Of a stretch of 34,772 bases of DNA, positions 1 through 34,157 are shown piece by piece (within the stretch, counting starts at the first letter, position 1; the number at the start of each line of letters is the position of its first letter). Both the position numbers and the translations under genes were made by a program. A model generated the notes under the pieces. It ran no database searches and was not told where the DNA came from. It saw only the letters and a program-made list of their open reading frames with translations. The DNA is from Prochloron sp. SulCav_FS08_3_32_3330 (GTDB lineage: Bacteria; Cyanobacteriota; Cyanobacteriia; Cyanobacteriales; DYNF01), in NCBI GenBank assembly GCA_020721205.1, contig DYNF01000042.1, positions 1 through 34,772 on the forward strand, given 5' to 3'.

Positions 1-158
1 ACCCGTCTTTACGGGTTTTAGGATTAAATATTAACTAATATTTAAAAATTCAACCCTGGGTCGGCAGTGGTTTTGCCTATGTAGCAAGGGGTTTCAACCC
101 GTTGCCTCCCGAGAATGAAAACGCCCTGCTCCGCAGGGCTAAAGCCCAACTACGAACT
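1..158. repeat. Right half of a nested palindromic dispersed element (copy R1)
   Basis: The stretch holds, in order, the hairpin ACCCGTCTTTACGGGT, an AT-rich palindrome around ATATTAACTAATATT, a decayed hairpin, a GGGTTTCAACCC hairpin, the border AGAATGAAAACGCCCTGC (112-129) and an outer arm ending CCCAACTACGAACT (to 158). The same modules recur at 6769, 8760, 17608, 30541, 34097 and 34663. The window begins inside the element, so its left half is not visible here. The outer arm overlaps the 3' end of the histidine kinase gene and contains its stop codon (150-152). Confidence 0.85.
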
Positions 159-3100
159 GTTTACTGATAACTGTAAAAGTGCTTCTGTCAGTTCAGCGAT
201 CGCAAGGGGTTTACTAATATAATCATTCATGCCTACATCTAAACACATTTGACGATCTTCTTCTAAAGCATTAGCCGTTAAAGCAATAATATAAGGTTGA
301 GTTTTTGATGATTGACGAATGATTTTAGTAGCAGTGACTCCATCCATTTCAGGCATTTGCATATCCATTAAAATTATGTCATAAAATTGTTTTTCTAACA
401 TCGCTAAAACTTCTAAACCGTTGTTAGCAATATCCGCACTATAACCAAGTTTTTTTAAGGTTAAAATAGCGACTTTTTGATTGACTTTATTATCTTCTGC
501 TAAGAGAATTTTCAGAGATTTATTAATCTCTATGTTAGCAGTAGAAACTTTAGGAGTTTGTGCTAATAATAGGGGTTCAGAAATTGATTTTAGTTTAATG
601 GTAAAGTAAAAAATTGAACCTTGATCAAGATTTTTTTCTGTTTCTAAATGCCAATAATCAGGAGGATATCCGCCTATAATAGAATGACTTTTTACCCAAA
701 TAGTTCCTCCCATTAAATTAACTAAACTTTTACTAATTGCTAATCCTAAACCAGTACCGCCATATTTTCTACTAATAGAAGCATCTGCTTGAGTAAAAGG
801 TTTAAATAATTGATGAAGACGATCTTTTTCAATCCCAATTCCTGTATCTTGAATATAAATTATTAATTCTGTTTCTGGTATAGAACAGGCATCTTGCCTG
901 TGATTACTACTAACAGATACAAAAATTGTCCCATCATGAGTAAATTTTATCGCATTTCCTAGTAAATTTAACAAGATTTGACGTAAACGGGAAGGATCCC
1001 CTAAAAAATGATTAGAAATAGAAGGATCAATGTCATAATTAAGTTTAATTCCTTTCTCTAAAACTTGTCTATTTAAGAGATTACAAACGGATTTAATCAG
1101 TTCTTTTAAGACAAAAGGATGTTCCTCTAATTGTAATTTTCCTGACTCAATTTTTGAGAAATCAAGGATATCATTAATAACTACTAATAAAGTTGAACCA
1201 CTATCTTGAATTGTTTGAACAATATCTTTTTGTTCCTCTGTTAAATCCGTACCTGAAAGTAATTGAGCCATTCCTAAAACTCCATTCATGGGAGTACGAA
1301 TTTCATGACTCATATTCGCTAAAAACTCACTTTTTGCTTTAGTAGCGGCTTCGGCGGCTTCTTTTGCTTCAGCTAAGGCTTTTTCTGTGTGAATACGCTC
1401 CGTAATATCCCTTGCCGCCGCATAAATAAGTTCACCTTTGGGTTTAGATCTCCATTCTAAATAAATATAAGAACCGTCTTTTTTGCGATATCTATTAATA
1501 AAGTTTACGATATCTATTCCTTTGTTTAGATTGCGCAGAGTTTCAAGGGTAGATTCCATATCATCAGGATGCACAAAATCCAGAAACTGCCTACCATTTA
1601 ACTCATCTACTGAATAGCCTAAAACATCAGACCATAACACACTAACTTTGCGAAAATAACCCTTAAGATCGGCAATACAAAGTAAATCTAAAGTAGTATT
1701 AAAAAATCCTTCTAATTCTTCCGTTTTATTGATTAATTCATCGGTTAATTTTTGGCGATCGCTGATATCACTGATATAACCATGCCAAATAATACTACCA
1801 TCTAATTGTTTTTGAGGTGTAGCATGACCGGAAACCCAGTTGATTCGCCCATTTTGATGAAAAACTCGATATTCACAATACCAAGGGGTGAGATTAGTGG
1901 CAGATTCTAAAATCGTCTGACTAATCAGTTCTAAATCGTCAGGATGTAACACTTTAAAAACGGCGGTAGCATCATCTTTGACTTGTTCGGGAGTGACATC
2001 ATAAATTTCTCGAATCCCATCACTAGAATAGGGAAAATGGCTAGTCTTATCAGTGCGGAGACGATATTGATAAATCATGCCCGGAATATGATGCGCAAGT
2101 TGATCAAGACGCTGTTTAGATTCCATTTGATCCGTTATATCTAATAACACTCCATATCGAGCAATATCACCATTTTCTCTGCGTTCAGTCGTAGTGCGTG
2201 CTTGTACCCATTTGACTTTTTTGCTTGGGGTAATAATCCGCCATTCATAGTGCAGAGGGGATAAATTTACTAGACTACGAACAGTGGCTTCTTGATAACC
2301 TGCCAGATCCTCGGGGTGGGTATGTTTAAGATAGATACTACTATCTGCCAAAAACTGCTCTACCGTAATTTCAAAAATGTTTTCCACGGCGGAACTGATA
2401 TATTCAAAATATTTTGAGCCATCTACACGATGAACAAGAATATAAATAACTCCCGGAGATGAGGAAGATATTTTTTGGAATCTGGCTTCACTTTCTCTGA
2501 GGGCGATTTCAGCTTGTTTTCTTTCTGTAATATCTTCTGATATCCCTAATAAATATTGAGGTTGACCAAATTCATCTGATATCGCTAGTTTTTTTGTATG
2601 AAGGAAACGAGTGCCATTATTTGTGTGGATAATTTCTTCAGGAATATCTAAAATTTTGCCACTTTCTAAGACTTCTCGATCTTTGGCAATAAAAAACTTT
2701 GCTTCTTCCGGGGGGAATAAATCATTGTCACTTTTTCCTAATAAGTTTTCTTTGGAATAACCTAATAATTCTTCCCCGGCTTTATTTAAACGCACAAATT
2801 GCAAATTTTGAGCATCTTTGACAAAAACCATATTGGGGATATTTTCAATAATAGAGTTAAGAAAATTTTGTAATTTCCATGTTTCTAGTTCCGCTTCTTT
2901 GCGATCGGTTACATCTAAAGTCACTCCATACCAAGCGATATCACCATTTTTACGACGTTCACAACGAGATCTCGCTTGAACCCATTTTATTTTTCCACTA
3001 GGGGTAATAATGCGCCATTCATGGAAAAAAGGCGCTAAATTTTCAGAACTTTGCGCAAATTTAGCCTCATAATCTTTGAGATCTTCGGGGTGAATTTGCT

Positions 3101-4415
3101 CAAGATAAAGATTCACATTCCCTAATAATTGTTCAAAAGTATATTCATATATGTCTTTAACGGCGGAACTTACATATTCAAAATATCTTGAACCATTAGG
3201 ACATTTCACAAAAATATAAATTATACCCGGAGAAGATAACGCTATTTTTTGAAATATTGCCTCACTTTCTTGCAGTGCTAACTCAATACTTTTGCGATCA
3301 TTTATATCCGTATGAGTGCTAATAAATCTTAAAGGTTGATTTTTTTCATCTCTTTCTACTACTTGACCTCGATCTAATATCCATTTATAAGTACCATTTT
3401 TACATTTTAAACGATGTTCATTTTGATAAACCTCAGTCTCACCTCGTAAATATGTAGCTATGTCCTCATAACATTGGATTTTATCCTCTGGATGTACTCG
3501 ACTATCCCATTCTGATAAATTATTACTAATTTCCTGTTCCTCATAACCTAACATCGCTTTCCATTGGCGAGAAAAATGCACTTCATTCGTTTGAGGATTC
3601 CAGTCCCAAGTGCCGTCTCCCGCCCCTTCTACCGCTAACTGCCAACGGGCTTCACTTTCCCTTAAGGCGATTTCTATGTGTTTTAATTTAGTAATATCTC
3701 GTCCAACGGAATGAATGGCGATTAATGCCCCCTGTTCGTCAAAAATGCCCTGATTTAACCATTGAGTCCAACCAATTGTACCATCTCCACGATGATCTCG
3801 ATTTTCCGCCAAAAAACTTGATTTTTCAGGGTTTAATCTGGATATTTGAGTAATAATACTTTGTAAATCATTGGGATCCGCAAAATCCAGCCATTTTTTC
3901 CCTTTTATCTCCTCTAAACTACAACCAAGGGCATCACAAAGGGCTTGATTGGCAAAATTAATCGTTGTATCAGGATGCGATCGCAAGATAAAATCCCTTT
4001 GTTGTTCTGCCAGTTGAAGATAACGATTTTCACTTTGTTCAAAAGATTGTTGAACTTTTGTGACCATTTCATGCAAAGAATCAGTCAGAATCCTCAGTTC
4101 AGTAATAGACTGAGGATTTGTCAACATTTCAGAGGGTTCTTTCTCGATTAAAGTTTTACTTACTTGACTAATGCGTAAAATCCAACGACTAAGCCAATGA
4201 GATGTTAAAATACCGATGCTTGTAGTGATAAACATAATCAGAAAACCCAATAAAATTAGATGCTGATTATTGATGTGTAAATAGTCAACTATTCCCACTA
4301 TTCCCACTATTCCCACTATTTGCACAAAAAAAGGAAAGATTAACACCCATTTTAAAGAGATGTTAGACACAAGCGATCGCTTATTTCTATTCTGAGAGTT
4401 TAACCGTTGTTGCAT
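150..4415 (-). CDS. Multi-PAS hybrid sensor histidine kinase with C-terminal receiver
   Basis: A 1421-residue membrane sensor kinase. Two hydrophobic segments (about 22-43 and 52-71) are followed by a HAMP-like stretch, then about seven PAS/PAC domains (about 130-1010) marked by repeated HPEDL and DITERK/DVTDRK signatures. HisKA follows with SHEIRTPMNG, phospho-acceptor His1037. Next come an HATPase domain with an N box (LLNLLGNAIKFT) and G box (DTGIGI), and a receiver with LLAEDN and phospho-acceptor Asp1351 in LMDMQMPEMDG. It should autophosphorylate and pass phosphate to its own receiver, so an external phosphotransfer partner is probable; none is nearby. The signal cannot be read from the sequence, and no PAS carries a LOV cysteine motif. 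Oddities are a 9-bp tandem repeat in the first membrane segment, a dispersed repeat inserted in frame in the HATPase domain, and a stop codon lying in a repeat. Family is certain, ligand unknown. Confidence 0.95.
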   Translation of the reverse strand: MQQRLNSQNRNKRSLVSNISLKWVLIFPFFVQIVGIVGIVGIVDYLHINNQHLILLGFLIMFITTSIGILTSHWLSRWILRISQVSKTLIEKEPSEMLTNPQSITELRILTDSLHEMVTKVQQSFEQSENRYLQLAEQQRDFILRSHPDTTINFANQALCDALGCSLEEIKGKKWLDFADPNDLQSIITQISRLNPEKSSFLAENRDHRGDGTIGWTQWLNQGIFDEQGALIAIHSVGRDITKLKHIEIALRESEARWQLAVEGAGDGTWDWNPQTNEVHFSRQWKAMLGYEEQEISNNLSEWDSRVHPEDKIQCYEDIATYLRGETEVYQNEHRLKCKNGTYKWILDRGQVVERDEKNQPLRFISTHTDINDRKSIELALQESEAIFQKIALSSPGIIYIFVKCPNGSRYFEYVSSAVKDIYEYTFEQLLGNVNLYLEQIHPEDLKDYEAKFAQSSENLAPFFHEWRIITPSGKIKWVQARSRCERRKNGDIAWYGVTLDVTDRKEAELETWKLQNFLNSIIENIPNMVFVKDAQNLQFVRLNKAGEELLGYSKENLLGKSDNDLFPPEEAKFFIAKDREVLESGKILDIPEEIIHTNNGTRFLHTKKLAISDEFGQPQYLLGISEDITERKQAEIALRESEARFQKISSSSPGVIYILVHRVDGSKYFEYISSAVENIFEITVEQFLADSSIYLKHTHPEDLAGYQEATVRSLVNLSPLHYEWRIITPSKKVKWVQARTTTERRENGDIARYGVLLDITDQMESKQRLDQLAHHIPGMIYQYRLRTDKTSHFPYSSDGIREIYDVTPEQVKDDATAVFKVLHPDDLELISQTILESATNLTPWYCEYRVFHQNGRINWVSGHATPQKQLDGSIIWHGYISDISDRQKLTDELINKTEELEGFFNTTLDLLCIADLKGYFRKVSVLWSDVLGYSVDELNGRQFLDFVHPDDMESTLETLRNLNKGIDIVNFINRYRKKDGSYIYLEWRSKPKGELIYAAARDITERIHTEKALAEAKEAAEAATKAKSEFLANMSHEIRTPMNGVLGMAQLLSGTDLTEEQKDIVQTIQDSGSTLLVVINDILDFSKIESGKLQLEEHPFVLKELIKSVCNLLNRQVLEKGIKLNYDIDPSISNHFLGDPSRLRQILLNLLGNAIKFTHDGTIFVSVSSNHRQDACSIPETELIIYIQDTGIGIEKDRLHQLFKPFTQADASISRKYGGTGLGLAISKSLVNLMGGTIWVKSHSIIGGYPPDYWHLETEKNLDQGSIFYFTIKLKSISEPLLLAQTPKVSTANIEINKSLKILLAEDNKVNQKVAILTLKKLGYSADIANNGLEVLAMLEKQFYDIILMDMQMPEMDGVTATKIIRQSSKTQPYIIALTANALEEDRQMCLDVGMNDYISKPLAIAELTEALLQLSVNSS
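885..901. repeat. Short ACAGGCA-TCT-TGCCTGT palindrome inside the kinase gene
   Basis: Perfect 7-bp arms with a 3-bp loop. Read on the minus strand it encodes the peptide RQDACS (within residues 1172-1178), between the strand ending FVSVSSN and the strand ELIIYIQDTG of the HATPase domain. The same palindrome occurs outside genes at 4689-4705 and, changed, at 4668-4684 and 16091-16107. The in-frame position in a surface loop suggests insertion of a mobile repeat that was tolerated. Confidence 0.7.
4288..4320. repeat. 9-bp tandem repeat (ACTATTCCC, about 3.7 units)
   Basis: Three full units and a partial one lie in the coding sequence of the histidine kinase. They encode the run IVGIVGIVGIV in the first membrane segment (about residues 33-43). 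Because the unit is three codons, gain or loss of a unit keeps frame but changes helix length by three residues. Confidence 0.9.
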
Positions 4416-8943: not shown

Positions 8944-11900
8944 CTAATGAGATTCTAATTTATAAGAAACAATTTTCCAAGGTAAAATCGGATCATTTAT
9001 ATTATCTTCAATGTTACGTTCTAATAAATCAACTTTTTCCTTAATTTTTAAGTTTAAATCACTGGATAAATTAATTTTAGTTGTTTCTCCATAAGCTTCA
9101 TAACATCTTAAAATTATATCTTTGTTATCCTTATTTTCCCCTAATTTAAACGCCATTAAGATTAAATTATCCCCTTCTAAATTAAGAAATGTTCCTTCAT
9201 CTTGCAAAAAGAACTTACCACCTTTATTCTGATACATATTAATAAAAATGTCAAGGAATTTAGAATTAAATTCATAACCTTTTTGGACAATTTTTGCAGT
9301 TTTCCAGTCCCCAAGATGAGGATAAATACCGTAACTAAATTGATGTATTCCTCTGTCAGCGAGAGGATCTGGAAAAGTAGAACTTCTTAACAAAGTTAAA
9401 CGAATTTGATCCGGTTTACTATCATAACCATATTTACAATTATTAAATAATGTAACCCCATAATTATTATCACTTAAACTTGCCCAATGTAAAGCAGAAA
9501 CTTCCCATTTTGCCTGATCTATTTTCTGATCAGAAATAGTTTTACGATCTATCGTACCACAGGGCATTTCATAACTAACTTTATCACTTTCTATCGTTAA
9601 AGGGAAAGCAGTTTTAACTAATATATGATCTTCTAGCCATTTTACCGTTGTATTAATAGTTAATAAAGGAGAGTTAAAAGATAAAATATAGTCTTGAGTA
9701 AATTCAGATTTACCAAAAATTTTAATAATTCTCACTATTTGACGTAAATTTCCTTTTTCTAACCATTGAATAGATATTAATTCTGCCGGAAGTAATTTTT
9801 TACTTTCATAGTTTGGATCAATATTCCACGCATCCCAATATTGTCCTTGATCAGTAAAAAACTGTAATTCATTTCCTTTGCCCTTAAAAACTTGTTTTTG
9901 ATTAACTTTATCATAAAAGGTACTGATTTCACCCGTATTTTGATCTACTTCAATTTTTACCTGATCATTTTCTAAGATAAAATCTTTTTGACTTAATTTA
10001 ATCTCTTGCTGTTTTCGGTTTGAAAGACAAGCATAAAAAACTTTATAGCCGATAGAAGGTATATTTTCAGCCAAAAATAACCATTGATTTTCTTGGATTA
10101 GTTGAGAAGGAATTTCCTCCCCTTTATTATTTAAAAAATACCAATTTCCGGCGGGTAACTCTACAGTAATAAAGTCACTACGTTCCCAGTTTAAACTATT
10201 AAAAACTAAAATCGCTTCCCCTTCATTTATTAATGAATTATCTAACTTAATATAAGATGCAATTTCTTGTAAATATGTCCCGATCATCTTACTTATTAGC
10301 TGTTCAATTTTTTGCCATTTTTCGTTAGCTTCTATAAATACTTCAGGAATAGATGTACCGGGTAAAATATCATGAAACTGATTAAATAACATATCTTTCC
10401 ATAATGGGTCAATCTTTTGTTTTTCTCTTTGACAATTTTCTTGATTATAGCTATTGTTTGTCATCGAAAAACTTTTTTTCCTATAACTCCTCTTTTTCAG
10501 AGAAGATTGGTGTATAATATAATTAATAGTATTAAGTAATTCTGCTTGATATAAAAGGATTTCACTTTGACGATTAAACCATTTTTGTTCACTATGGGTA
10601 GTATAGCATCCCCTGTGAAATTCTAAATAAAGTTCATCCTCCCATACTGGAAACGGAGACTCTTTTTCTTTACTTTCTAATAGTTGTAAATAGGTTAAGT
10701 TAGTCGTAAATTTACTATCAGGAAAAAAGGGAGAATTAGACCATTTATTTTGTACTTCTAACATATCACGAGTAGGACCGCCACCATGATCTCCCACCCC
10801 CGGAAGCCATAACATTTCTTGTAAATTAGTTTGACTTTCCCAGTCTAACCAATAATTTACCATTGTTAAAGGATTAGTATTCATCACTCCTGCTTTATTT
10901 GGAGGAGAAATTAAAGTTAATATTTCACTTTGATCAGGAGATTTCCACCAAAAAACACCATGAGGAAATTTATTAGTATCATTCCAATGAAGTTTCCCCG
11001 TAACAAAATATTTAATCCCACTTTGTAAGAGAATTTGAGGAAGTTGCCAACAAAAACCAAAACTATCAGGAAGCCAAGCAATTTCTGTAATATTACCAAA
11101 TTTTTCGATATTATATTTTTGTCCATATAAGAGTTGACGGATCAAAGATTCTCCCGAAATAATATTAACTTCAGGCTCTACCCACATTCCCCCTATTACT
11201 TCCCATTTTTTAGCGATTATTTTTTCCTTAATTTTGGCAAAAAGATCGGGACGATTTTTCTCGATCCATTCATATAATACGGGGGTAGAGTGACAGAAAG
11301 TTAAGTCTTTATATTCCTCTTGTAAATTTAAAACAGAAGTAAAAGTTTTTTGTGCCACTTCCCAAGTTTCTTTCGTTTCCCATAGCCAAGCTAGATCTAA
11401 ATGGGTATTTCCTACTAAATAAAATTGACGCTGTTTAATCCCGATCGCAAGGGGGATTAAATTTGCTCTAATTTTGCTTAAATGTTGATCAAAAATATCC
11501 CTATTTCTTGCCAGTTGCCAATCAATTTTATTAACTTCTTTTGCCAAAATTTCTAACTGATCGGGCTTGAATTTTTCTAAATATTGGTGTAAGATCGTTA
11601 ACTCATCGGCAAAAGTAGCTAAACAAAAACCTGTATCATTTTCATAGATAGCTTTTGACTCCATTAAAGCCCCTAGATCATGATTTGGACTAACTAATCT
11701 TATTAATACCGTAATTTCTTGATTTATCTTACTATTAGAAGTTAAAATAATGCGGGTACTAGAATCAAATAGATCCCCCTCTTGAATCAGATTACCATTA
11801 AGATAAATTTTCGCATTTTCAGCATACCAAGTTAAACATAATCTTAAGGTTAAATTTTCAATTAAATAACCGTTAAAATCTTGAGGAATTATAAATTTTT

Positions 11901-12108
11901 GACCAAACCATTGTACTTGACAACCTTTTGGAAAGATGATCTGATTTTTATGATTAATTTCAACTTTTTGCCCTTTAGTTAAATCTAAATTATTTAACTT
12001 ATTAATATCTAAATCTTCGGAAAAATATAACCAGTTTGGCTGTGAATCCCATTGGATAAAATGACGTAGTTTGTCAATAGTTTGAGTAATAGTGTTTAAG
12101 TTTTTCAT
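8944..12108 (-). CDS. Glycoside hydrolase family 38 alpha-mannosidase
   Basis: A 1054-residue cytosolic-looking enzyme (no signal peptide) that should hydrolyse alpha-mannosides. The GH38 catalytic domain starts near residue 230: VGNTHLDLAWLW gives the zinc-binding pair His236/Asp238, and WLPDSFGFCWQLPQIL gives the nucleophile Asp348. Further marks are the GVGDHGGGPT loop and FNQFHDILPGTSIPEV. The C-terminal half is the usual beta-rich domain. A Lys/Ser/Asn-rich segment of about 35 residues precedes PLWKDMLFNQFHD and looks like a lineage-specific loop. No sugar transporter or other glycosidase is adjacent; possible substrates are storage or cell-surface mannosides, which is inference. Confidence 0.92.
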   Translation of the reverse strand: MKNLNTITQTIDKLRHFIQWDSQPNWLYFSEDLDINKLNNLDLTKGQKVEINHKNQIIFPKGCQVQWFGQKFIIPQDFNGYLIENLTLRLCLTWYAENAKIYLNGNLIQEGDLFDSSTRIILTSNSKINQEITVLIRLVSPNHDLGALMESKAIYENDTGFCLATFADELTILHQYLEKFKPDQLEILAKEVNKIDWQLARNRDIFDQHLSKIRANLIPLAIGIKQRQFYLVGNTHLDLAWLWETKETWEVAQKTFTSVLNLQEEYKDLTFCHSTPVLYEWIEKNRPDLFAKIKEKIIAKKWEVIGGMWVEPEVNIISGESLIRQLLYGQKYNIEKFGNITEIAWLPDSFGFCWQLPQILLQSGIKYFVTGKLHWNDTNKFPHGVFWWKSPDQSEILTLISPPNKAGVMNTNPLTMVNYWLDWESQTNLQEMLWLPGVGDHGGGPTRDMLEVQNKWSNSPFFPDSKFTTNLTYLQLLESKEKESPFPVWEDELYLEFHRGCYTTHSEQKWFNRQSEILLYQAELLNTINYIIHQSSLKKRSYRKKSFSMTNNSYNQENCQREKQKIDPLWKDMLFNQFHDILPGTSIPEVFIEANEKWQKIEQLISKMIGTYLQEIASYIKLDNSLINEGEAILVFNSLNWERSDFITVELPAGNWYFLNNKGEEIPSQLIQENQWLFLAENIPSIGYKVFYACLSNRKQQEIKLSQKDFILENDQVKIEVDQNTGEISTFYDKVNQKQVFKGKGNELQFFTDQGQYWDAWNIDPNYESKKLLPAELISIQWLEKGNLRQIVRIIKIFGKSEFTQDYILSFNSPLLTINTTVKWLEDHILVKTAFPLTIESDKVSYEMPCGTIDRKTISDQKIDQAKWEVSALHWASLSDNNYGVTLFNNCKYGYDSKPDQIRLTLLRSSTFPDPLADRGIHQFSYGIYPHLGDWKTAKIVQKGYEFNSKFLDIFINMYQNKGGKFFLQDEGTFLNLEGDNLILMAFKLGENKDNKDIILRCYEAYGETTKINLSSDLNLKIKEKVDLLERNIEDNINDPILPWKIVSYKLESH

Positions 12109-25345: not shown

Positions 25346-25454
25346 TAGTGGATAGTTGATAGTTGATAGTGGATAGTGGATAGTTGATAGTGGATAGTTG
25401 ATAGTGGATAGTTGATAGTTGATAATTGATAATTGATAATTGATAGTTGATAAT
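25346..25454. repeat. Heptamer array GATAGTT/GATAGTG
   Basis: About fifteen 7-bp units, GATAGTT, GATAGTG and, at the end, GATAATT. It occupies most of the gap between bioD and the DUF433 gene. The unit differs from that at 22024 although the period is the same. Confidence 0.9.
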
Positions 25455-25502: not shown

Positions 25503-25751
25503 ATGAATCAAGAAAATTTATTAACAAGAATTGAATTAAATCCTTTAATTATGACAGGAAAACCAGTGATTAAAGGAACTCGTTTAACAGTAGAATATAT
25601 TTTAAAATTGTTAGCTAATGGTGCAACAATTTCGGAAATTATTGAAGAATATCAAGGTTTAAATGAACAGGATATTTACGCTTGTTTGTTATTTGCTAGT
25701 CAATCTTTATCTGAAACTTCTTTTATGCCTTTAATCTTAGAAACAGTTTAA
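25503..25751 (+). CDS. DUF433-family antitoxin
   Basis: An 82-residue protein with the DUF433 motif GKPVIKGTRLTVEYILKLLANGAT, seen at residues 19-42 (core KPVIKGTRLTVEYIL), and a short helical C terminus (EQDIYACLLFAS). This winged or three-helix fold is found in antitoxins of VapB45-like pairs. The next gene, a DUF5615 PIN-like protein, starts three bases after its stop. It is intact. Confidence 0.88.
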   Translation: MNQENLLTRIELNPLIMTGKPVIKGTRLTVEYILKLLANGATISEIIEEYQGLNEQDIYACLLFASQSLSETSFMPLILETV

Positions 25752-25754
25752 ACT

Positions 25755-26102
25755 ATGCGTTTTATTATTGATGAATGTACAGGATCATCAGTTGCTAATT
25801 GGCTCAAAAATCAAGGTTATGAGGTTTTTTCTGTCTATGATAATGCCAGAGGAATGATAGATGATGATATTATTATTAAAGCATTTATTGAAGGATGGAT
25901 TTTAATTACAAATGATAAAGATTTCGGTGAAAAAATTTATAGAGAGGGTTATTCCCATCAAGGAGTAATTCTACTTAGATTAGAAAATGAACGGACAAAA
26001 AATAAAATAGAAGTTTTACAAAAATTTTTAAGTCTTTATTCTAATCAAATTAGTAATCAATTTATTGTCATCACTGAAAATAAAGTTAGATTTTCTAAAT
26101 AA
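25755..26102 (+). CDS. DUF5615 PIN-like toxin
   Basis: A 115-residue Mut7-C/PIN-like protein: MRFIIDECTGSSVANWL with the first acidic residue, YEVFSVYDNARGMIDDDI, and LITNDKDFGEKIY with the second acidic cluster. The family is usually the toxin partner of DUF433 proteins. It probably acts as an RNase. The operon of two genes looks complete and in frame. Confidence 0.88.
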   Translation: MRFIIDECTGSSVANWLKNQGYEVFSVYDNARGMIDDDIIIKAFIEGWILITNDKDFGEKIYREGYSHQGVILLRLENERTKNKIEVLQKFLSLYSNQISNQFIVITENKVRFSK

Positions 26103-26525: not shown

Positions 26526-28304
26526 TTACTTTTTTCCTAATAACCAATAGGTTAACATTTCCCCTTTTCCCTTAATATGAATTAAACCCCTTTTTTCCAA
26601 GATAAAATCTGATTTTAAATGTTCATAAACCACCTCTGTGACTTGAATATGACCCGCTTTCCCATGAGATTCCATTCTTGATGCAATATTAACCGCATCT
26701 CCCCATAAATCATAAATAAATTTTTTCTGTCCGATCACTCCTGCTACTACGGATCCCGTATTAATTCCAATTCTAATTTGAAAAGGTTTACCCGTTTTTT
26801 GTTGAAAATGTTTAATTGCTATTTGCAGATCTAAAGCCATATTTGCGATGGCAAAAACATGATTTTCTTGAGGGATAGGAATGCCTCCAGCCACCATATA
26901 AGCATCTCCAATCGTTTTAATTTTTTCCACTTCATGTTTATCAGCAAGGCGATCAAATGCGGAAAAAATATCATTTAATAAAGCAATTAATTCTAATGGT
27001 TTCATCTGAGCAGATAGAGGAGTAAAACCTACAATATCAGCGAATAAAATCGTCGCAGATTCAAATTGTTCTGCCACAGAATCCTGAACTTGTTTTAATT
27101 TTTGAACAATCGCTTTTGGTAAAATATTTAATAATAATCTTTCCGATTTTGCCTTTTCTAATTTTAACGCTTTGTTGGCATTTATTCTTTCAGTAACATC
27201 ACTTTGAATGCCAATAAAATGAGTTAATTTATTTTCTTGATTATAAATAGGAGAAATAGTTAATTCATTCCAAAAAGGGGTACCATCTTTGCGATAATTT
27301 AATAAAGTAACGGTACAATCTTTCCCTTCTTTAACTGCTTTTCTTAAAAAACTAACTGAAGCGGGGGAGGTCTTTTTCCCTTGTAAAAAACGACAATTTT
27401 TTCCTAAAGTTTCCTTCTTAGAATAACCTGTAATTGTTTCAAAAGCAGAATTAATATAAATTAAGGGCATATCAGGTAAATTAACATCAGCAATCACAAT
27501 CCCTACGCAACTCGCTTCAATCGCTTTATCTCTTAATAATAAAGTGTGTTGAGTCTCAATCCGTTGAGTTACATCGTTTTGAATCCCGACAAAATGAGTT
27601 AATTTTTGATCATGATTATAAATAGGAGAAATGGTTAATTCATTCCAAAAAGGAGTGCCATCTTTGCGATAATTTAAGAGAGTAATTGTACAATTTCTTT
27701 CCTCTTTTATGGCTTGGCGGAGTTGATTTAAGACGGGTTGATCTCGATTATTTCTTTGTAAAAAACGACAATTTTTTCCTAATACTTCAATTGCTGAATA
27801 ACCAGTAATTTTTTCAAAGGCAGAATTAACATAAATTAAGGGCATATCAGGTAATAAAGCATCGGCAATAACTATACCTACACTACTAGCTTCTATGGCT
27901 TTATCTCTTAAATTTAATGCCTGTTGAATATCATTTTGATAAATAATACCACTACGCCAATTATTATTAGTAATATCTTTGGCTATGCCATAACTAAAAT
28001 TTTTTTCATAAGGAGAAAAACGCCAAGATAACCAACGATAATTACCATTTTTAGCTAAAAACCGATGCGTAATTGTTAATATTTCATTTTCGCTAGTTTG
28101 ATAACATTTAATATCAATACTTTGGGTCACCGCAATATCATCAGGATGGACAAAATCTAACCAAGGACGAGATTTTAATTCCTCAATCGTCCAACCTAAA
28201 ATTTCGGTCCAGATTTGATTTAATTCAACAAAATAACCTACTTGACTACGAATAGATAATAAGTCAGTGGAAAGATTAAAAAAGTTGTGGATATTAGGGT
28301 TCAT
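26526..28304 (-). CDS. PAS-LOV-LOV class III adenylate cyclase (probable blue-light-activated)
   Basis: A 592-residue soluble protein predicted to make cAMP from ATP under blue light. It starts with a PAS domain (about 10-120). Two LOV domains follow, each with the flavin motif GKNCRFLQ (adduct cysteines Cys179 and Cys304), LLNYRKDGTPFWNELTISPI, and the Gln of THFVGIQ/THFIGIQ. A coiled linker (about 375-400) leads to the cyclase domain. Metal ligands are Asp423 (FADIVGF) and Asp467 (GDAYM); adenine-selecting residues are Lys463 and Asp532 (YDLWG); transition-state residues are Asn539 and Arg543. The Lys/Asp pair indicates adenylate, not guanylate, cyclase. The LOV domains are 125 codons apart and highly alike in DNA, so one arose by recent duplication. 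I start at the ATG at 28304; a TTG ten codons earlier is unlikely. Single-LOV cyanobacterial cyclases are known, whereas two LOVs are unusual. Confidence 0.93.
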   Translation of the reverse strand: MNPNIHNFFNLSTDLLSIRSQVGYFVELNQIWTEILGWTIEELKSRPWLDFVHPDDIAVTQSIDIKCYQTSENEILTITHRFLAKNGNYRWLSWRFSPYEKNFSYGIAKDITNNNWRSGIIYQNDIQQALNLRDKAIEASSVGIVIADALLPDMPLIYVNSAFEKITGYSAIEVLGKNCRFLQRNNRDQPVLNQLRQAIKEERNCTITLLNYRKDGTPFWNELTISPIYNHDQKLTHFVGIQNDVTQRIETQHTLLLRDKAIEASCVGIVIADVNLPDMPLIYINSAFETITGYSKKETLGKNCRFLQGKKTSPASVSFLRKAVKEGKDCTVTLLNYRKDGTPFWNELTISPIYNQENKLTHFIGIQSDVTERINANKALKLEKAKSERLLLNILPKAIVQKLKQVQDSVAEQFESATILFADIVGFTPLSAQMKPLELIALLNDIFSAFDRLADKHEVEKIKTIGDAYMVAGGIPIPQENHVFAIANMALDLQIAIKHFQQKTGKPFQIRIGINTGSVVAGVIGQKKFIYDLWGDAVNIASRMESHGKAGHIQVTEVVYEHLKSDFILEKRGLIHIKGKGEMLTYWLLGKK

Positions 28305-31245: not shown

Positions 31246-34095
31246 TTAAGTGTTACAGATAAACTTTTCCGCCTCCGCAGGAGGTAAAGGTCGAGAAAAA
31301 TAATAACCTTGTCCATATTCACAGTTTAAAAGTTTTAATTTTTCTAAGTGAATATTTGTTTCAATTCCTTCTGCAATCACATCCATTTCTAAAGTTTGAG
31401 CTAAATTAATAATTGCTTGGACAATTTCTATATTTTCCCCCGTTTCACTAATTCTTTGCACAAAAGATTTATCAATTTTTAAAGTATTAATAGGAAAACG
31501 ATGTAAATAACTTAAGGAAGAATAACCTGTACCAAAATCATCTAAACTTACTTGAATATTTCTCTTTCTAATTTCCTTTAAAATATCAATTGCCGTTTCT
31601 TGATTATCAAGAAGGATACTTTCAGTAATTTCTAATTTTAAATTATAAGGATTAAAATCTATTTTTTCTAAAATATGATCAATCGTTTCAATTAAATCTT
31701 TTTGTTGTAATTGTTTACCCGAAAGATTAACACTAACTTTTAAATTTTCAGCACAAGGAAATTTTAATTGCCACAGTTTCATCTGTAAACAAGCCTCTAA
31801 TAAAATCCATTCTCCTAAAGGAATAATTAAACCTGTTTCTTCTGCTATGGGGATAAATTCATAAGGAGAAAGTAATTTCTGATTAGGATGTTTCCATCTA
31901 ACTAAAGCTTCAAAACCTGCCAATTTATTGATTTTTAAATCCACAATTGGTTGATAATATAAGATAAATTCTTTCCGTTCTAATGCTAATCTTAAATTAG
32001 TTTCCACTTCTAAAAAACGACTAATTTCAATGTACATTAAAGGATCAAAAATTTCGTAACGAGATTTCCCTTTTTCTTTCGCTCTATACATAGCTAGATC
32101 CGCATCTCGTAAGAGATCAGACCATTCTTGATAACCTGTAGAACTAAAAGCAATACCAATACTAGCACTGGTAATAATTTCCTTTCTTTCCAGATAGAAA
32201 GGTAAGGTTAATTCATAATTAATTCTTTCCGCTATTACCGTCGCTTCTTTTATATTTTTAATCGGATCTAATAAGATCGTAAATTCATCTCCTCCTAATC
32301 TTGCTAATGTATCCGAAGAACGCACAGTTTTTTCTAATCTTTGGGCGATCGCTACTAATAAATTATCGCCAATTTGATGACCTAAACTATCATTAATTAT
32401 TTGAAATCTATCTATATCAATAAATAAAATAGCAAATAAATAATCCGGCTCTCTTTTACTTAATTTAAGACATTGTTCTACCCTTTCTTTAAATAAATTA
32501 CGATTATATAAACCCGTCAAACTATCATGAAAAGCATCATAAATTAACTGATCTTCTATTTGTTTTCTTTGGGTAATATCCATCGCCGTAGATATTACTA
32601 ATCTTCTTTGATCAGGTAATTTTCCTAAAGGGGCAGAACTAAAATTCCAAATTCGCAAGTCTCCTCTTTTCGTATTAATTGTAAACTCTCCATTTTCTAC
32701 TTTATGATCTAACTTATAAAGTTGATCAATTAATAAATTAACTACATTTTTATCTTCTTGATATGCTTTTTCTGTCCAGTCATTAATCGTAGGAATATCT
32801 TCATGAGTATAGCCTGTAATATCTGTCCATGCCTGATTAATTTGGATCACTTCTCCATCTTCAGCATGAATAATTATCGGAAAAGGAGCATTAAAAACTG
32901 CCCTTTGAAAACGATTTTTTGTTTCCATTAATTCCTGTTCTAATTGTTTTCTATCTGTAATATCTATTGCCAATCCTTCAATAATTATTTCATCATTATC
33001 TAGTCTTTTCCCAATAGATTTATCATAAATCCAATGCCATTTTCCTTGAGCATCTTTCATCCGATATTCTATTTCAAAACTGCCATTTTTAGCAAATTTT
33101 TCAATAATTGAAACAACTTTCGGTAAATCTTCAGGATGAATTAAATTTTGCCAAGTCCAAGGATTTTGATAAAGATATTCAAGATCATATCCTAACACTG
33201 CCCTAACAAAAGGAGAATAATAAATTCCCCCTTTTTTACTAGAAAAAGTGTAAATCATAGCGGGTAAACCTTCCACTAATTTTTGATATTGATTTTTACT
33301 ATTTCTCAATTGAATTTCTACTAATTTTCTTTCTTCAATTTCCTTTTCTAACTGTTGAGTTCGTTGTTTAACTCTTTGTTCTAATTGATTATTTAATTTG
33401 ATTAATTCCCCTTCAATTTGTTTTAATAAAGTAATATCTCTCCCCACCGCTTGAAACTCAATTATTTCACCTTTTTTATCAAAAATAACCCGATCTGTCC
33501 ACTGATGCCAACAAATATTTCCTTGAGGATCATAAACTCGATGTTCACAAGTTAAAATCGGATTTTCTACGCCTAATTTTTCGATATATTGATTCACAAT
33601 TAATTGATCTTCTTCTGGTATTAAAGGGATAAAAGTATGACCGATTAATTGTTCTTTACTTAGATTAAAATAGCGACAATAAGCATCATTTACAAAGGTC
33701 AAAGTACCATTAGGTAAAAAGCGACAAATTAATTCAGTTTGATCTTCAACTATTCCCTTATACAGATTTTCACTGGTTTGTATTTGTTCTTGTAATTTTT
33801 TCAAAATCTTTAAAGATTGAGATGAATGGTAATAGCAGAAGATAAGAATACTAATCATAATGAAAATTACACCGATTAAAGTCATAATACGCCATTCTGT
33901 CCAGAAAGGATTAGCTTGATCATACCACTTCTGATCAAAATATTGGTATTCTTTTGTTCCTATAATATTTTTAACTGTGCGCTCTAATTTTACCAATAAT
34001 TCTCGATTATTCTGGATCAAATTATTACTATTCTGAGTAATAAAAATAGGGTATAATAAAATGATAATTAAAAAAGAAATAACAGCTATAATCAT
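31246..34095 (-). CDS. Membrane PAS-GGDEF-EAL cyclic-di-GMP enzyme
   Basis: A 949-residue protein. Two hydrophobic segments (about 2-19 and 70-89) flank a short periplasmic loop. Three PAS domains follow (about 107-230, 267-388, 392-512), with a coiled coil (about 232-262) between the first two. The GGDEF domain has an intact active site, G601-G-D-E-F605, preceded at the right spacing by an RSSD inhibitory site. The EAL domain has E729-A-L, KLEITES, DDFGTGYSSLSYL and IAEGIET, so both synthesis and hydrolysis of c-di-GMP look possible. I start at the ATG at 34095; a TTG three codons upstream lies inside repeat R6. No good ribosome site is visible, only AGG in the repeat. Confidence 0.93.
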   Translation of the reverse strand: MIIAVISFLIIILLYPIFITQNSNNLIQNNRELLVKLERTVKNIIGTKEYQYFDQKWYDQANPFWTEWRIMTLIGVIFIMISILIFCYYHSSQSLKILKKLQEQIQTSENLYKGIVEDQTELICRFLPNGTLTFVNDAYCRYFNLSKEQLIGHTFIPLIPEEDQLIVNQYIEKLGVENPILTCEHRVYDPQGNICWHQWTDRVIFDKKGEIIEFQAVGRDITLLKQIEGELIKLNNQLEQRVKQRTQQLEKEIEERKLVEIQLRNSKNQYQKLVEGLPAMIYTFSSKKGGIYYSPFVRAVLGYDLEYLYQNPWTWQNLIHPEDLPKVVSIIEKFAKNGSFEIEYRMKDAQGKWHWIYDKSIGKRLDNDEIIIEGLAIDITDRKQLEQELMETKNRFQRAVFNAPFPIIIHAEDGEVIQINQAWTDITGYTHEDIPTINDWTEKAYQEDKNVVNLLIDQLYKLDHKVENGEFTINTKRGDLRIWNFSSAPLGKLPDQRRLVISTAMDITQRKQIEDQLIYDAFHDSLTGLYNRNLFKERVEQCLKLSKREPDYLFAILFIDIDRFQIINDSLGHQIGDNLLVAIAQRLEKTVRSSDTLARLGGDEFTILLDPIKNIKEATVIAERINYELTLPFYLERKEIITSASIGIAFSSTGYQEWSDLLRDADLAMYRAKEKGKSRYEIFDPLMYIEISRFLEVETNLRLALERKEFILYYQPIVDLKINKLAGFEALVRWKHPNQKLLSPYEFIPIAEETGLIIPLGEWILLEACLQMKLWQLKFPCAENLKVSVNLSGKQLQQKDLIETIDHILEKIDFNPYNLKLEITESILLDNQETAIDILKEIRKRNIQVSLDDFGTGYSSLSYLHRFPINTLKIDKSFVQRISETGENIEIVQAIINLAQTLEMDVIAEGIETNIHLEKLKLLNCEYGQGYYFSRPLPPAEAEKFICNT

Positions 34096-34096
34096 T

Positions 34097-34157
34097 AAAT
34101 TCAACCTGCGTATGCCTGTTTTGCTTATGTAGCAACGGATTTCAACCCGTTGCCACC
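34097..34157. repeat. Dispersed element, right-end fragment abutting a start codon (copy R6)
   Basis: AATTCAACCTGCGTATGCC and GCAACGGATTTCAACCCGTTGC correspond to the last two hairpins of R3, the second as AGCAACGGATTTCAACCCGT. The match begins about two bases upstream of the ATG of the GGDEF-EAL gene, so the repeat forms its entire proximal leader. Confidence 0.75.

What the first reader, a model, noticed from the sequence alone, without database searches (positions are those of the whole stretch)
26526..28304. Tandem-LOV adenylate cyclase: probable light-switched cAMP synthase
Seen: two GKNCRFLQ motifs (Cys179, Cys304) in complete LOV domains, plus a class III cyclase domain with both metal Asp residues, the adenine-selecting Lys463/Asp532 pair and Asn539/Arg543. 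Known: LOV cysteines form a flavin adduct in blue light, and single-LOV cyclases from cyanobacteria are photoactivated. Inference: two LOV domains in series could widen the range of light response or change recovery kinetics. I know of no characterised PAS-LOV-LOV-cyclase.
Basis: partly seen in the sequence, partly recalled or inferred. Interest (0 to 1): 0.8.

Follow-up and report, generated by a model that had tools for sequence, protein, structure and literature searches.

The report
Adenylate cyclase with duplicated light sensor
A cyanobacterium carries a probable blue-light-switched enzyme that makes cAMP, like one already known, but its light-sensing module has been duplicated within the gene, so it has two flavin light sensors in a row where the relatives found here have one.

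Summary
On the minus strand (28304 to 26526, 592 aa) lies PAS-LOV-LOV-class III cyclase, and every residue it named is where it said. Both LOV copies keep the adduct cysteine, the flavin-contacting Asn/Asn/Gln set and the two phosphate arginines. The cyclase keeps both metal Asp, the ATP-type Lys/Asp pair and Asn/Arg. The protein belongs to a cyanobacterial family of single-LOV cyclases (PAS-LOV-CHD, about 490 aa); a single-LOV cyclase from that phylum, mPAC, is blue-light activated about 30-fold in the literature. The second LOV arose by an in-frame 375-bp tandem duplication inside this gene. The copies are 74-82% identical at DNA level, group together in a tree (92/80), share residues absent from all relatives, and have pairwise dN/dS about 0.26. 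The spacing of PAS to first LOV and of last LOV to cyclase is unchanged from the single-LOV family. No other tandem LOV turned up in 719 cyanobacterial genomes sampled. These are the only two exact LOV motifs in the host genome, which has no BLUF protein. Light activation, and any gain from the second LOV, remain inferred. Verdict: a real, apparently undescribed natural variant of a known light-switched cyclase.

The parts
26526..28304 (-). whole gene, PAS-LOV1-LOV2-class III adenylate cyclase, 592 aa
   Evidence: open frame and translation; Pfam/NCBIfam
27960..28283 (-). N-terminal PAS domain (about residues 8-115), ligand unknown
   Evidence: PAS_3 hit 26-99; fold in both models; shared with 17-18 single-LOV relatives
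27546..27920 (-). LOV1 (residues 129-253)
   Evidence: phmmer to solved LOV domains, best E 3e-37; model matches LOV structures at Z up to 21.2 over 128 residues
27768..27770 (-). Cys179, expected flavin-adduct cysteine of LOV1
27171..27545 (-). LOV2 (residues 254-378), next to the cyclase
   Evidence: phmmer to solved LOV domains, best E 1e-40
27393..27395 (-). Cys304, expected flavin-adduct cysteine of LOV2
27559..27933 (-). tandem duplication unit, copy 1 (375 bp; ends cannot be placed to the base)
27184..27558 (-). tandem duplication unit, copy 2 (375 bp)
27513..27569 (-). helix 246-264 joining LOV1 to LOV2, the new junction made by the duplication
   Evidence: one continuous helix in the AlphaFold2 model; spacing measured
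27090..27194 (-). signalling helix plus cyclase-transducer segment (371-405, LLLNILP)
   Evidence: helices 371-394 and 397-405; spacing from LOV to LLNILP conserved in the relatives; 5o5k/5o5l alignment starts at 373-378
26538..27074 (-). class III cyclase homology domain (411-589), with metal Asp423/Asp467, Lys463, Asp532, Asn539, Arg543
   Evidence: Pfam PF00211 E 9e-67; Z 29.2 to bacterial adenylyl cyclase 5o5k; residues checked

Best explanation
It is a blue-light-activated adenylate cyclase of the cyanobacterial PAS-LOV-cyclase family whose LOV unit was duplicated in frame. The protein is expected to be a parallel homodimer along a helical spine. Blue light makes a flavin-C4a adduct with Cys304 in LOV2 and Cys179 in LOV1. 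LOV2, which keeps the family's native linker to the cyclase, is the main switch: its output helix (371-394) re-registers the cyclase-transducer segment and brings the two cyclase halves into the active dimer, so ATP becomes cAMP. LOV1 feeds its own movement into LOV2 through the continuous helix 246-264 and tunes threshold, amplitude or off-rate. Rising cAMP then acts through CRP-type receptors in the cell. Shown here: architecture, complete motifs, duplication, conserved outer linkers, cAMP-receptor-like genes. Inferred: flavin loading, light activation and its sign, dimerisation, LOV2 as main switch, LOV1 as modulator.
For: Complete LOV motif sets in both copies. Class III cyclase with ATP-type residues. 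Closest relatives are all single-LOV cyclases. Single-LOV mPAC from a cyanobacterium is blue-light activated: 30-fold, FMN (PMC9614035); dark 1.55 and light 43.3 per min (PMC8522238). PAS-to-first-LOV spacing (72) and last-LOV-to-LLNILP spacing (26) equal those of the family. The copies have pairwise dN/dS about 0.26, and neither has lost a flavin-contact residue. The engineered LOV + heme-PAS tandem kinase YHF integrates both signals with positive cooperativity (PMC6798134). The genome has cNMP-binding proteins, among them CRP-sized ones with a GEM..PRST pocket motif, and no BLUF.
Against: No flavin binding, photochemistry or cyclase activity can be measured here. LOV1-to-LOV2 spacing (24 residues from the DIT-type Asp to the first Gly) is 9 shorter than PAS-to-LOV (33), so it is not a copy of the native inter-domain linker and its coupling is unproven, although the same 24 spacing occurs in two other cyanobacterial proteins. 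The full-length model has pTM 0.42, and a dimer could not be modelled. I could not read the mPAC paper or obtain its sequence, so whether mPAC belongs to the PAS-LOV-CHD or the REC-LOV-CHD branch is not settled.
Confidence: 0.6

Rival explanations
1. Both LOVs bind flavin, but LOV1 is a structural or dimerising spacer with no role in the light response; the duplication is tolerated and nearly neutral, and the enzyme behaves like a single-LOV light-activated cyclase.
For: The copy next to the effector keeps the native linker. The junction spacing differs from the native one by 9 residues, which need not transmit. LOV1 departs from family-conserved residues at 184, 202 and 251.
Against: All flavin-contact residues of LOV1 are intact despite dS about 0.84 between copies, and pairwise dN/dS is about 0.26. 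A free copy would probably have lost some.
Confidence: 0.25
2. The duplication changed the sign or basal state: with the altered register between the LOVs the enzyme is active in the dark and blue light lowers activity, or two-step illumination gives a bell-shaped response.
For: In the LOV kinase YF1, linker length sets activity and light response with a seven-residue period, and single-residue additions change the response (PMC6798134). The new junction is shorter than the native PAS-LOV linker by 9 residues, not a multiple of 7.
Against: The linker that meets the cyclase is unchanged (26 in window and relatives), so the last LOV should act on it as in single-LOV enzymes.
Confidence: 0.1
3. 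LOV domains here report flavin redox state or oxygen rather than light in the cell; the cyclase is mainly a metabolic sensor.
For: Flavin photoreduction can signal in LOV domains even without the cysteine (abstract of PMC4682037).
Against: The adduct cysteine is kept in both copies and in every relative compared. The single-LOV cyclase mPAC is light activated.
Confidence: 0.05

Closest known systems
mPAC, single-LOV photoactivated adenylate cyclase of Microcoleus (Coleofasciculus) chthonoplastes PCC 7420 (Raffelberg 2013; activity data in PMC8522238)
   Same: Cyanobacterial LOV domain joined to an adenylate cyclase; same expected FMN/blue-light chemistry and product.
   Different: mPAC has one LOV (as described in PMC4284465 and, from memory, 483 aa); the window protein has two LOVs and 592 aa. 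The mPAC sequence could not be compared here.
PAS-LOV-CHD proteins of Symploca, Spirulina, Zarconia and others (L009-L016, L093-L102, L104)
   Same: Same N-terminal PAS, same PAS-LOV and LOV-CHD spacing, up to 72% identity in the best matched segments.
   Different: One NCRFLQ motif each; no second LOV.
REC-LOV-CHD cyclases (L103, L106, L107)
   Same: LOV joined to the same cyclase with the same 26-residue spacing.
   Different: Response-regulator receiver instead of PAS, one LOV, separate clade.
Phototropins (LOV1-LOV2-Ser/Thr kinase of plants and algae)
   Same: Two LOVs in series before one effector.
   Different: Kinase effector, eukaryotic, different linkers. Here the two LOVs come from a separate duplication of a bacterial LOV.
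YHF, engineered LOV + heme-PAS tandem histidine kinase (described in PMC6798134)
   Same: Two PAS-type sensors in series feeding one effector.
   Different: Man-made; one LOV and one heme-PAS; histidine kinase.
LOV-activated diguanylate cyclase MsLadC (PMC12805367); 8c05 is a LOV-activated diguanylate cyclase structure
   Same: Best solved match of the LOV1 model is 8c05 (Z 21.2, 128 residues); LOV drives a nucleotide cyclase through a coiled-coil linker.
   Different: GGDEF effector making c-di-GMP; one LOV.

Membership tests
LOV photoreceptor domains | GXNCRFLQ motif with adduct cysteine in each domain | tested here: met
   C179 and C304 in GKNCRFLQ
LOV photoreceptor domains | Flavin contacts Asn, Asn, Gln and two phosphate Arg | tested here: met
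   LOV1 R180, R196, N211, N221, Q242; LOV2 R305, R321, N336, N346, Q367, at the places given for DsLOV (R73, R89, N104, N114, Q135) in PMC4335406
LOV photoreceptor domains | LOV/PAS fold | tested here: met
   LOV1 model Z 18.5-21.2 to LOV structures; LOV2 strands and helices and phmmer E 1e-40 to solved LOV domains; NCBIfam YtvA family above cut-off
LOV photoreceptor domains | Flavin binding and reversible blue-light adduct | not testable with these tools
   needs spectroscopy
Class III adenylate cyclases | Two metal-binding Asp, transition-state Asn/Arg | tested here: met
   D423, D467, N539, R543; PF00211 E 9e-67; Z 29.2 to 5o5k
Class III adenylate cyclases | ATP-selecting Lys/Asp rather than Glu/Cys | tested here: met
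   K463 and D532. ATP use itself not measured.
Cyanobacterial single-LOV PAS-LOV-CHD family (mPAC-like) | Common descent of PAS, LOV and cyclase with family spacing | tested here: met
   alignments and spacing 72/26; tree
Cyanobacterial single-LOV PAS-LOV-CHD family (mPAC-like) | Exactly one LOV domain | tested here: not met
   two LOVs from a 375-bp duplication: a derived variant, not a standard member
Cyanobacterial single-LOV PAS-LOV-CHD family (mPAC-like) | Blue-light-stimulated cAMP production | not testable with these tools
   needs an activity assay
Phototropin | LOV1-LOV2 followed by a Ser/Thr kinase | tested here: not met
   effector is a class III cyclase; its two LOVs group together among cyanobacterial LOVs

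The most novel reading that the evidence does not exclude
The two LOVs have diverged into a slow and a fast sensor. LOV1, with Arg at Cys+5 and Cys+8 (Cys+8 is, by my count, the place of Arg61 in slow PpSB1-LOV), holds its adduct long; LOV2 switches fast. The enzyme then needs or remembers both, acting as a cooperative light-history detector rather than a simple switch, made by nature through a single in-frame duplication.
Probability: 0.2. Interest if true: 0.7.

Novelty: new variant of a known kind. Interest (0 to 1): 0.45.

Why it matters
Single-LOV cyclases are used as optogenetic tools, and mPAC suffers from high dark activity (PMC8522238). A natural enzyme with a second LOV from a traceable duplication is a ready experiment on how stacked sensors integrate signals: the single-LOV layout exists in relatives with identical outer linkers, so adding or removing 125 residues gives a clean before-and-after comparison. 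It may also offer a cyclase with a tighter dark state or different kinetics. It does not create a new class of photoreceptor.

Tried and rejected
Assembly artefact: rejected, as the copies differ at 96 of 375 bases. Two unrelated LOVs brought together by domain shuffling: disfavoured by their grouping (92/80) and by shared residues K135/K260, S161/S286 and K177/K302 absent from all 20 relatives compared; support is moderate because LOV2 is a long branch. Guanylate cyclase: disfavoured by Lys463/Asp532. Other tandem LOVs: pattern NCRFLQ x2 about 375 bp apart found only this gene in 390 genomes of the class; a wider spacing found none in 390 genomes of the order; the protein search of 391 genomes of the order gave only single-motif relatives. 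These scans need exact motifs, and cover only cyanobacteria and a sample of them, so tandem LOV cyclases elsewhere are not excluded. Plasmid collection: no match. RNA features: none in the window. The pdb_via list for the full-length model was filled by the cyclase domain and so barely tested the rest; LOV1 was therefore folded again with the PAS only. The first alignment for folding (A1) gave LOV1 no depth. Operon reading: the same-strand upstream genes (a Uma2-family protein and an NMT1-like binding protein) give no functional link. Glantz 2016 and Raffelberg 2013 are not held. A first spacing script had a faulty pattern and was replaced.

Full report
What is there. The gene lies on the minus strand, ATG at 28304 to stop at 26526, and encodes 592 aa. 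Pfam places a class III cyclase domain at 411-589 (E 9e-67) and three PAS stretches before it; NCBIfam's YtvA blue-light photoreceptor model matches twice, above its cut-off. The named residues were checked one by one: C179, C304, D423, K463, D467, D532, N539, R543. Each LOV also has the second phosphate arginine (R196, R321) and the Asn/Asn/Gln trio (N211/N221/Q242 and N336/N346/Q367), which DsLOV uses to hold its flavin (PMC4335406). Both LOVs match solved LOV domains by sequence (E 3e-37 and 1e-40).

Fold. The full-length AlphaFold2 model has mean pLDDT 80.8 but pTM 0.42, so domains are credible and their mutual placement is not. The cyclase part matches the bacterial adenylyl cyclase 5o5k at Z 29.2, 2.1 A over 215 residues. 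A separate PAS-LOV1 model matches LOV structures, best the LOV-activated diguanylate cyclase 8c05 at Z 21.2, 1.6 A over 128 residues. LOV1 runs into LOV2 by one helix (246-264), and LOV2 into the cyclase by helix 371-394.

Origin. The region 27184-27933 is a tandem repeat of period 375, that is 125 codons, in frame. The copies, aligned by codon over residues 129-253 and 254-378, are 88/125 identical in protein and 279/375 in DNA, with dS 0.84 and dN 0.22 (ratio about 0.26; small sample); against single-LOV relatives dS is 1.6 or more, or saturated. In a tree of 23 LOV domains the two copies group together (92/80), with the caution that LOV2 has a long branch. Three residues are shared by both copies and absent from 20 relatives: K135/K260, S161/S286, K177/K302. 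The simplest account is one duplication within this lineage after it split from the sampled relatives. The host is the only genome held of its genus and family, so the date cannot be narrowed.

Relatives. The best relatives in the collection of 84,980 species genomes and in 391 genomes of the order are proteins of about 490 aa with the same PAS, one LOV and the same cyclase; three others carry a receiver domain instead of the PAS. Every PAS-bearing relative keeps 72 residues from the end motif of the PAS to NCRFLQ, and nearly all relatives keep 26 (one has 25) from the end motif of the LOV to LLNILP. The window protein keeps both numbers, and only the inner junction is new. That junction, 24 residues from Asp to Gly, is 9 shorter than the PAS-LOV one, but the same 24 occurs in two other cyanobacterial proteins. 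No other tandem LOV was found in the genomes sampled (719 distinct handles across), within the limits of exact-motif scans.

Setting. In the host genome these are the only two exact NCRFLQ sites, there is no BLUF protein, there are at least six other class III cyclases of 58-64% identity over the cyclase part without a LOV motif, and 14 cNMP-binding domains, two of them in CRP-sized proteins with a GEM..PRST motif. In cyanobacteria blue light raises cAMP and drives motility through Cya1, and SYCRP1 is the cAMP receptor needed for motility (PMC4284465), so a light-to-cAMP route has a plausible reader. The neighbours give no functional link.

Mechanism. A cyanobacterial single-LOV cyclase, mPAC, is activated about 30-fold by blue light. 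Because the linker between last LOV and cyclase is unchanged, LOV2 is the likely main switch and LOV1 an added input. Sensors in series are known to integrate: the engineered YHF answers light and oxygen with positive cooperativity (PMC6798134). LOV1 has Arg at Cys+5 and Cys+8 where most relatives have Gly and Thr. By my count Cys+8 is Arg61 of PpSB1-LOV. In that protein the nearby change Arg66 to Ile speeds recovery about 100-fold, presumably by loss of a salt bridge to the FMN phosphate (PMC6047819). LOV1 lacks an Arg at the Arg66 place (Cys+13 is Leu), so a slow LOV1 is only a lead.

Verdict. A real, well-formed, apparently undescribed tandem-LOV variant of a known light-switched cyclase, with a clear origin. 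The light response itself and the gain from the second LOV are untested.

Noticed in passing
window 25503-25751 (+) and 25755-26102 (+): Small ORF resembling (by eye) a DUF433-type antitoxin followed by a DUF5615 PIN-like protein: probable toxin-antitoxin pair, convergent with the cyclase gene.
   Followed up: partly
window 25346-25452: Fifteen copies of a 7-base repeat (TAGTTGA) that read as a probably spurious (INYQLST)n ORF; relative L015 has a similar (STLNSQL)n stretch in the open frame upstream of its LOV cyclase.
   Followed up: partly
L103, L106, L107: Receiver-LOV-cyclase proteins: a response regulator domain and a LOV on one adenylate cyclase, a separate clade that may combine phosphorylation and light.
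   Followed up: partly
window 27744-27761 (LOV1 residues 182-187): LOV1 has Arg184 and Arg187 where 18 of 20 and 17 of 20 relatives have Gly and Thr; possible change in flavin phosphate contacts and recovery rate.
   Followed up: partly
window 150-4415 (-) and 31246-34104 (-): Two further large PAS proteins in the same window: a hybrid histidine kinase with about seven PAS repeats and a three-PAS GGDEF-EAL protein.
   Followed up: no
window 8944-12108 (-): Glycoside hydrolase family 38 alpha-mannosidase of 1054 aa.
   Followed up: no
G000: The host is the sole genome held for its genus and family, 4.73 Mb, window G+C 32%: an isolated cyanobacterial lineage.
   Followed up: no
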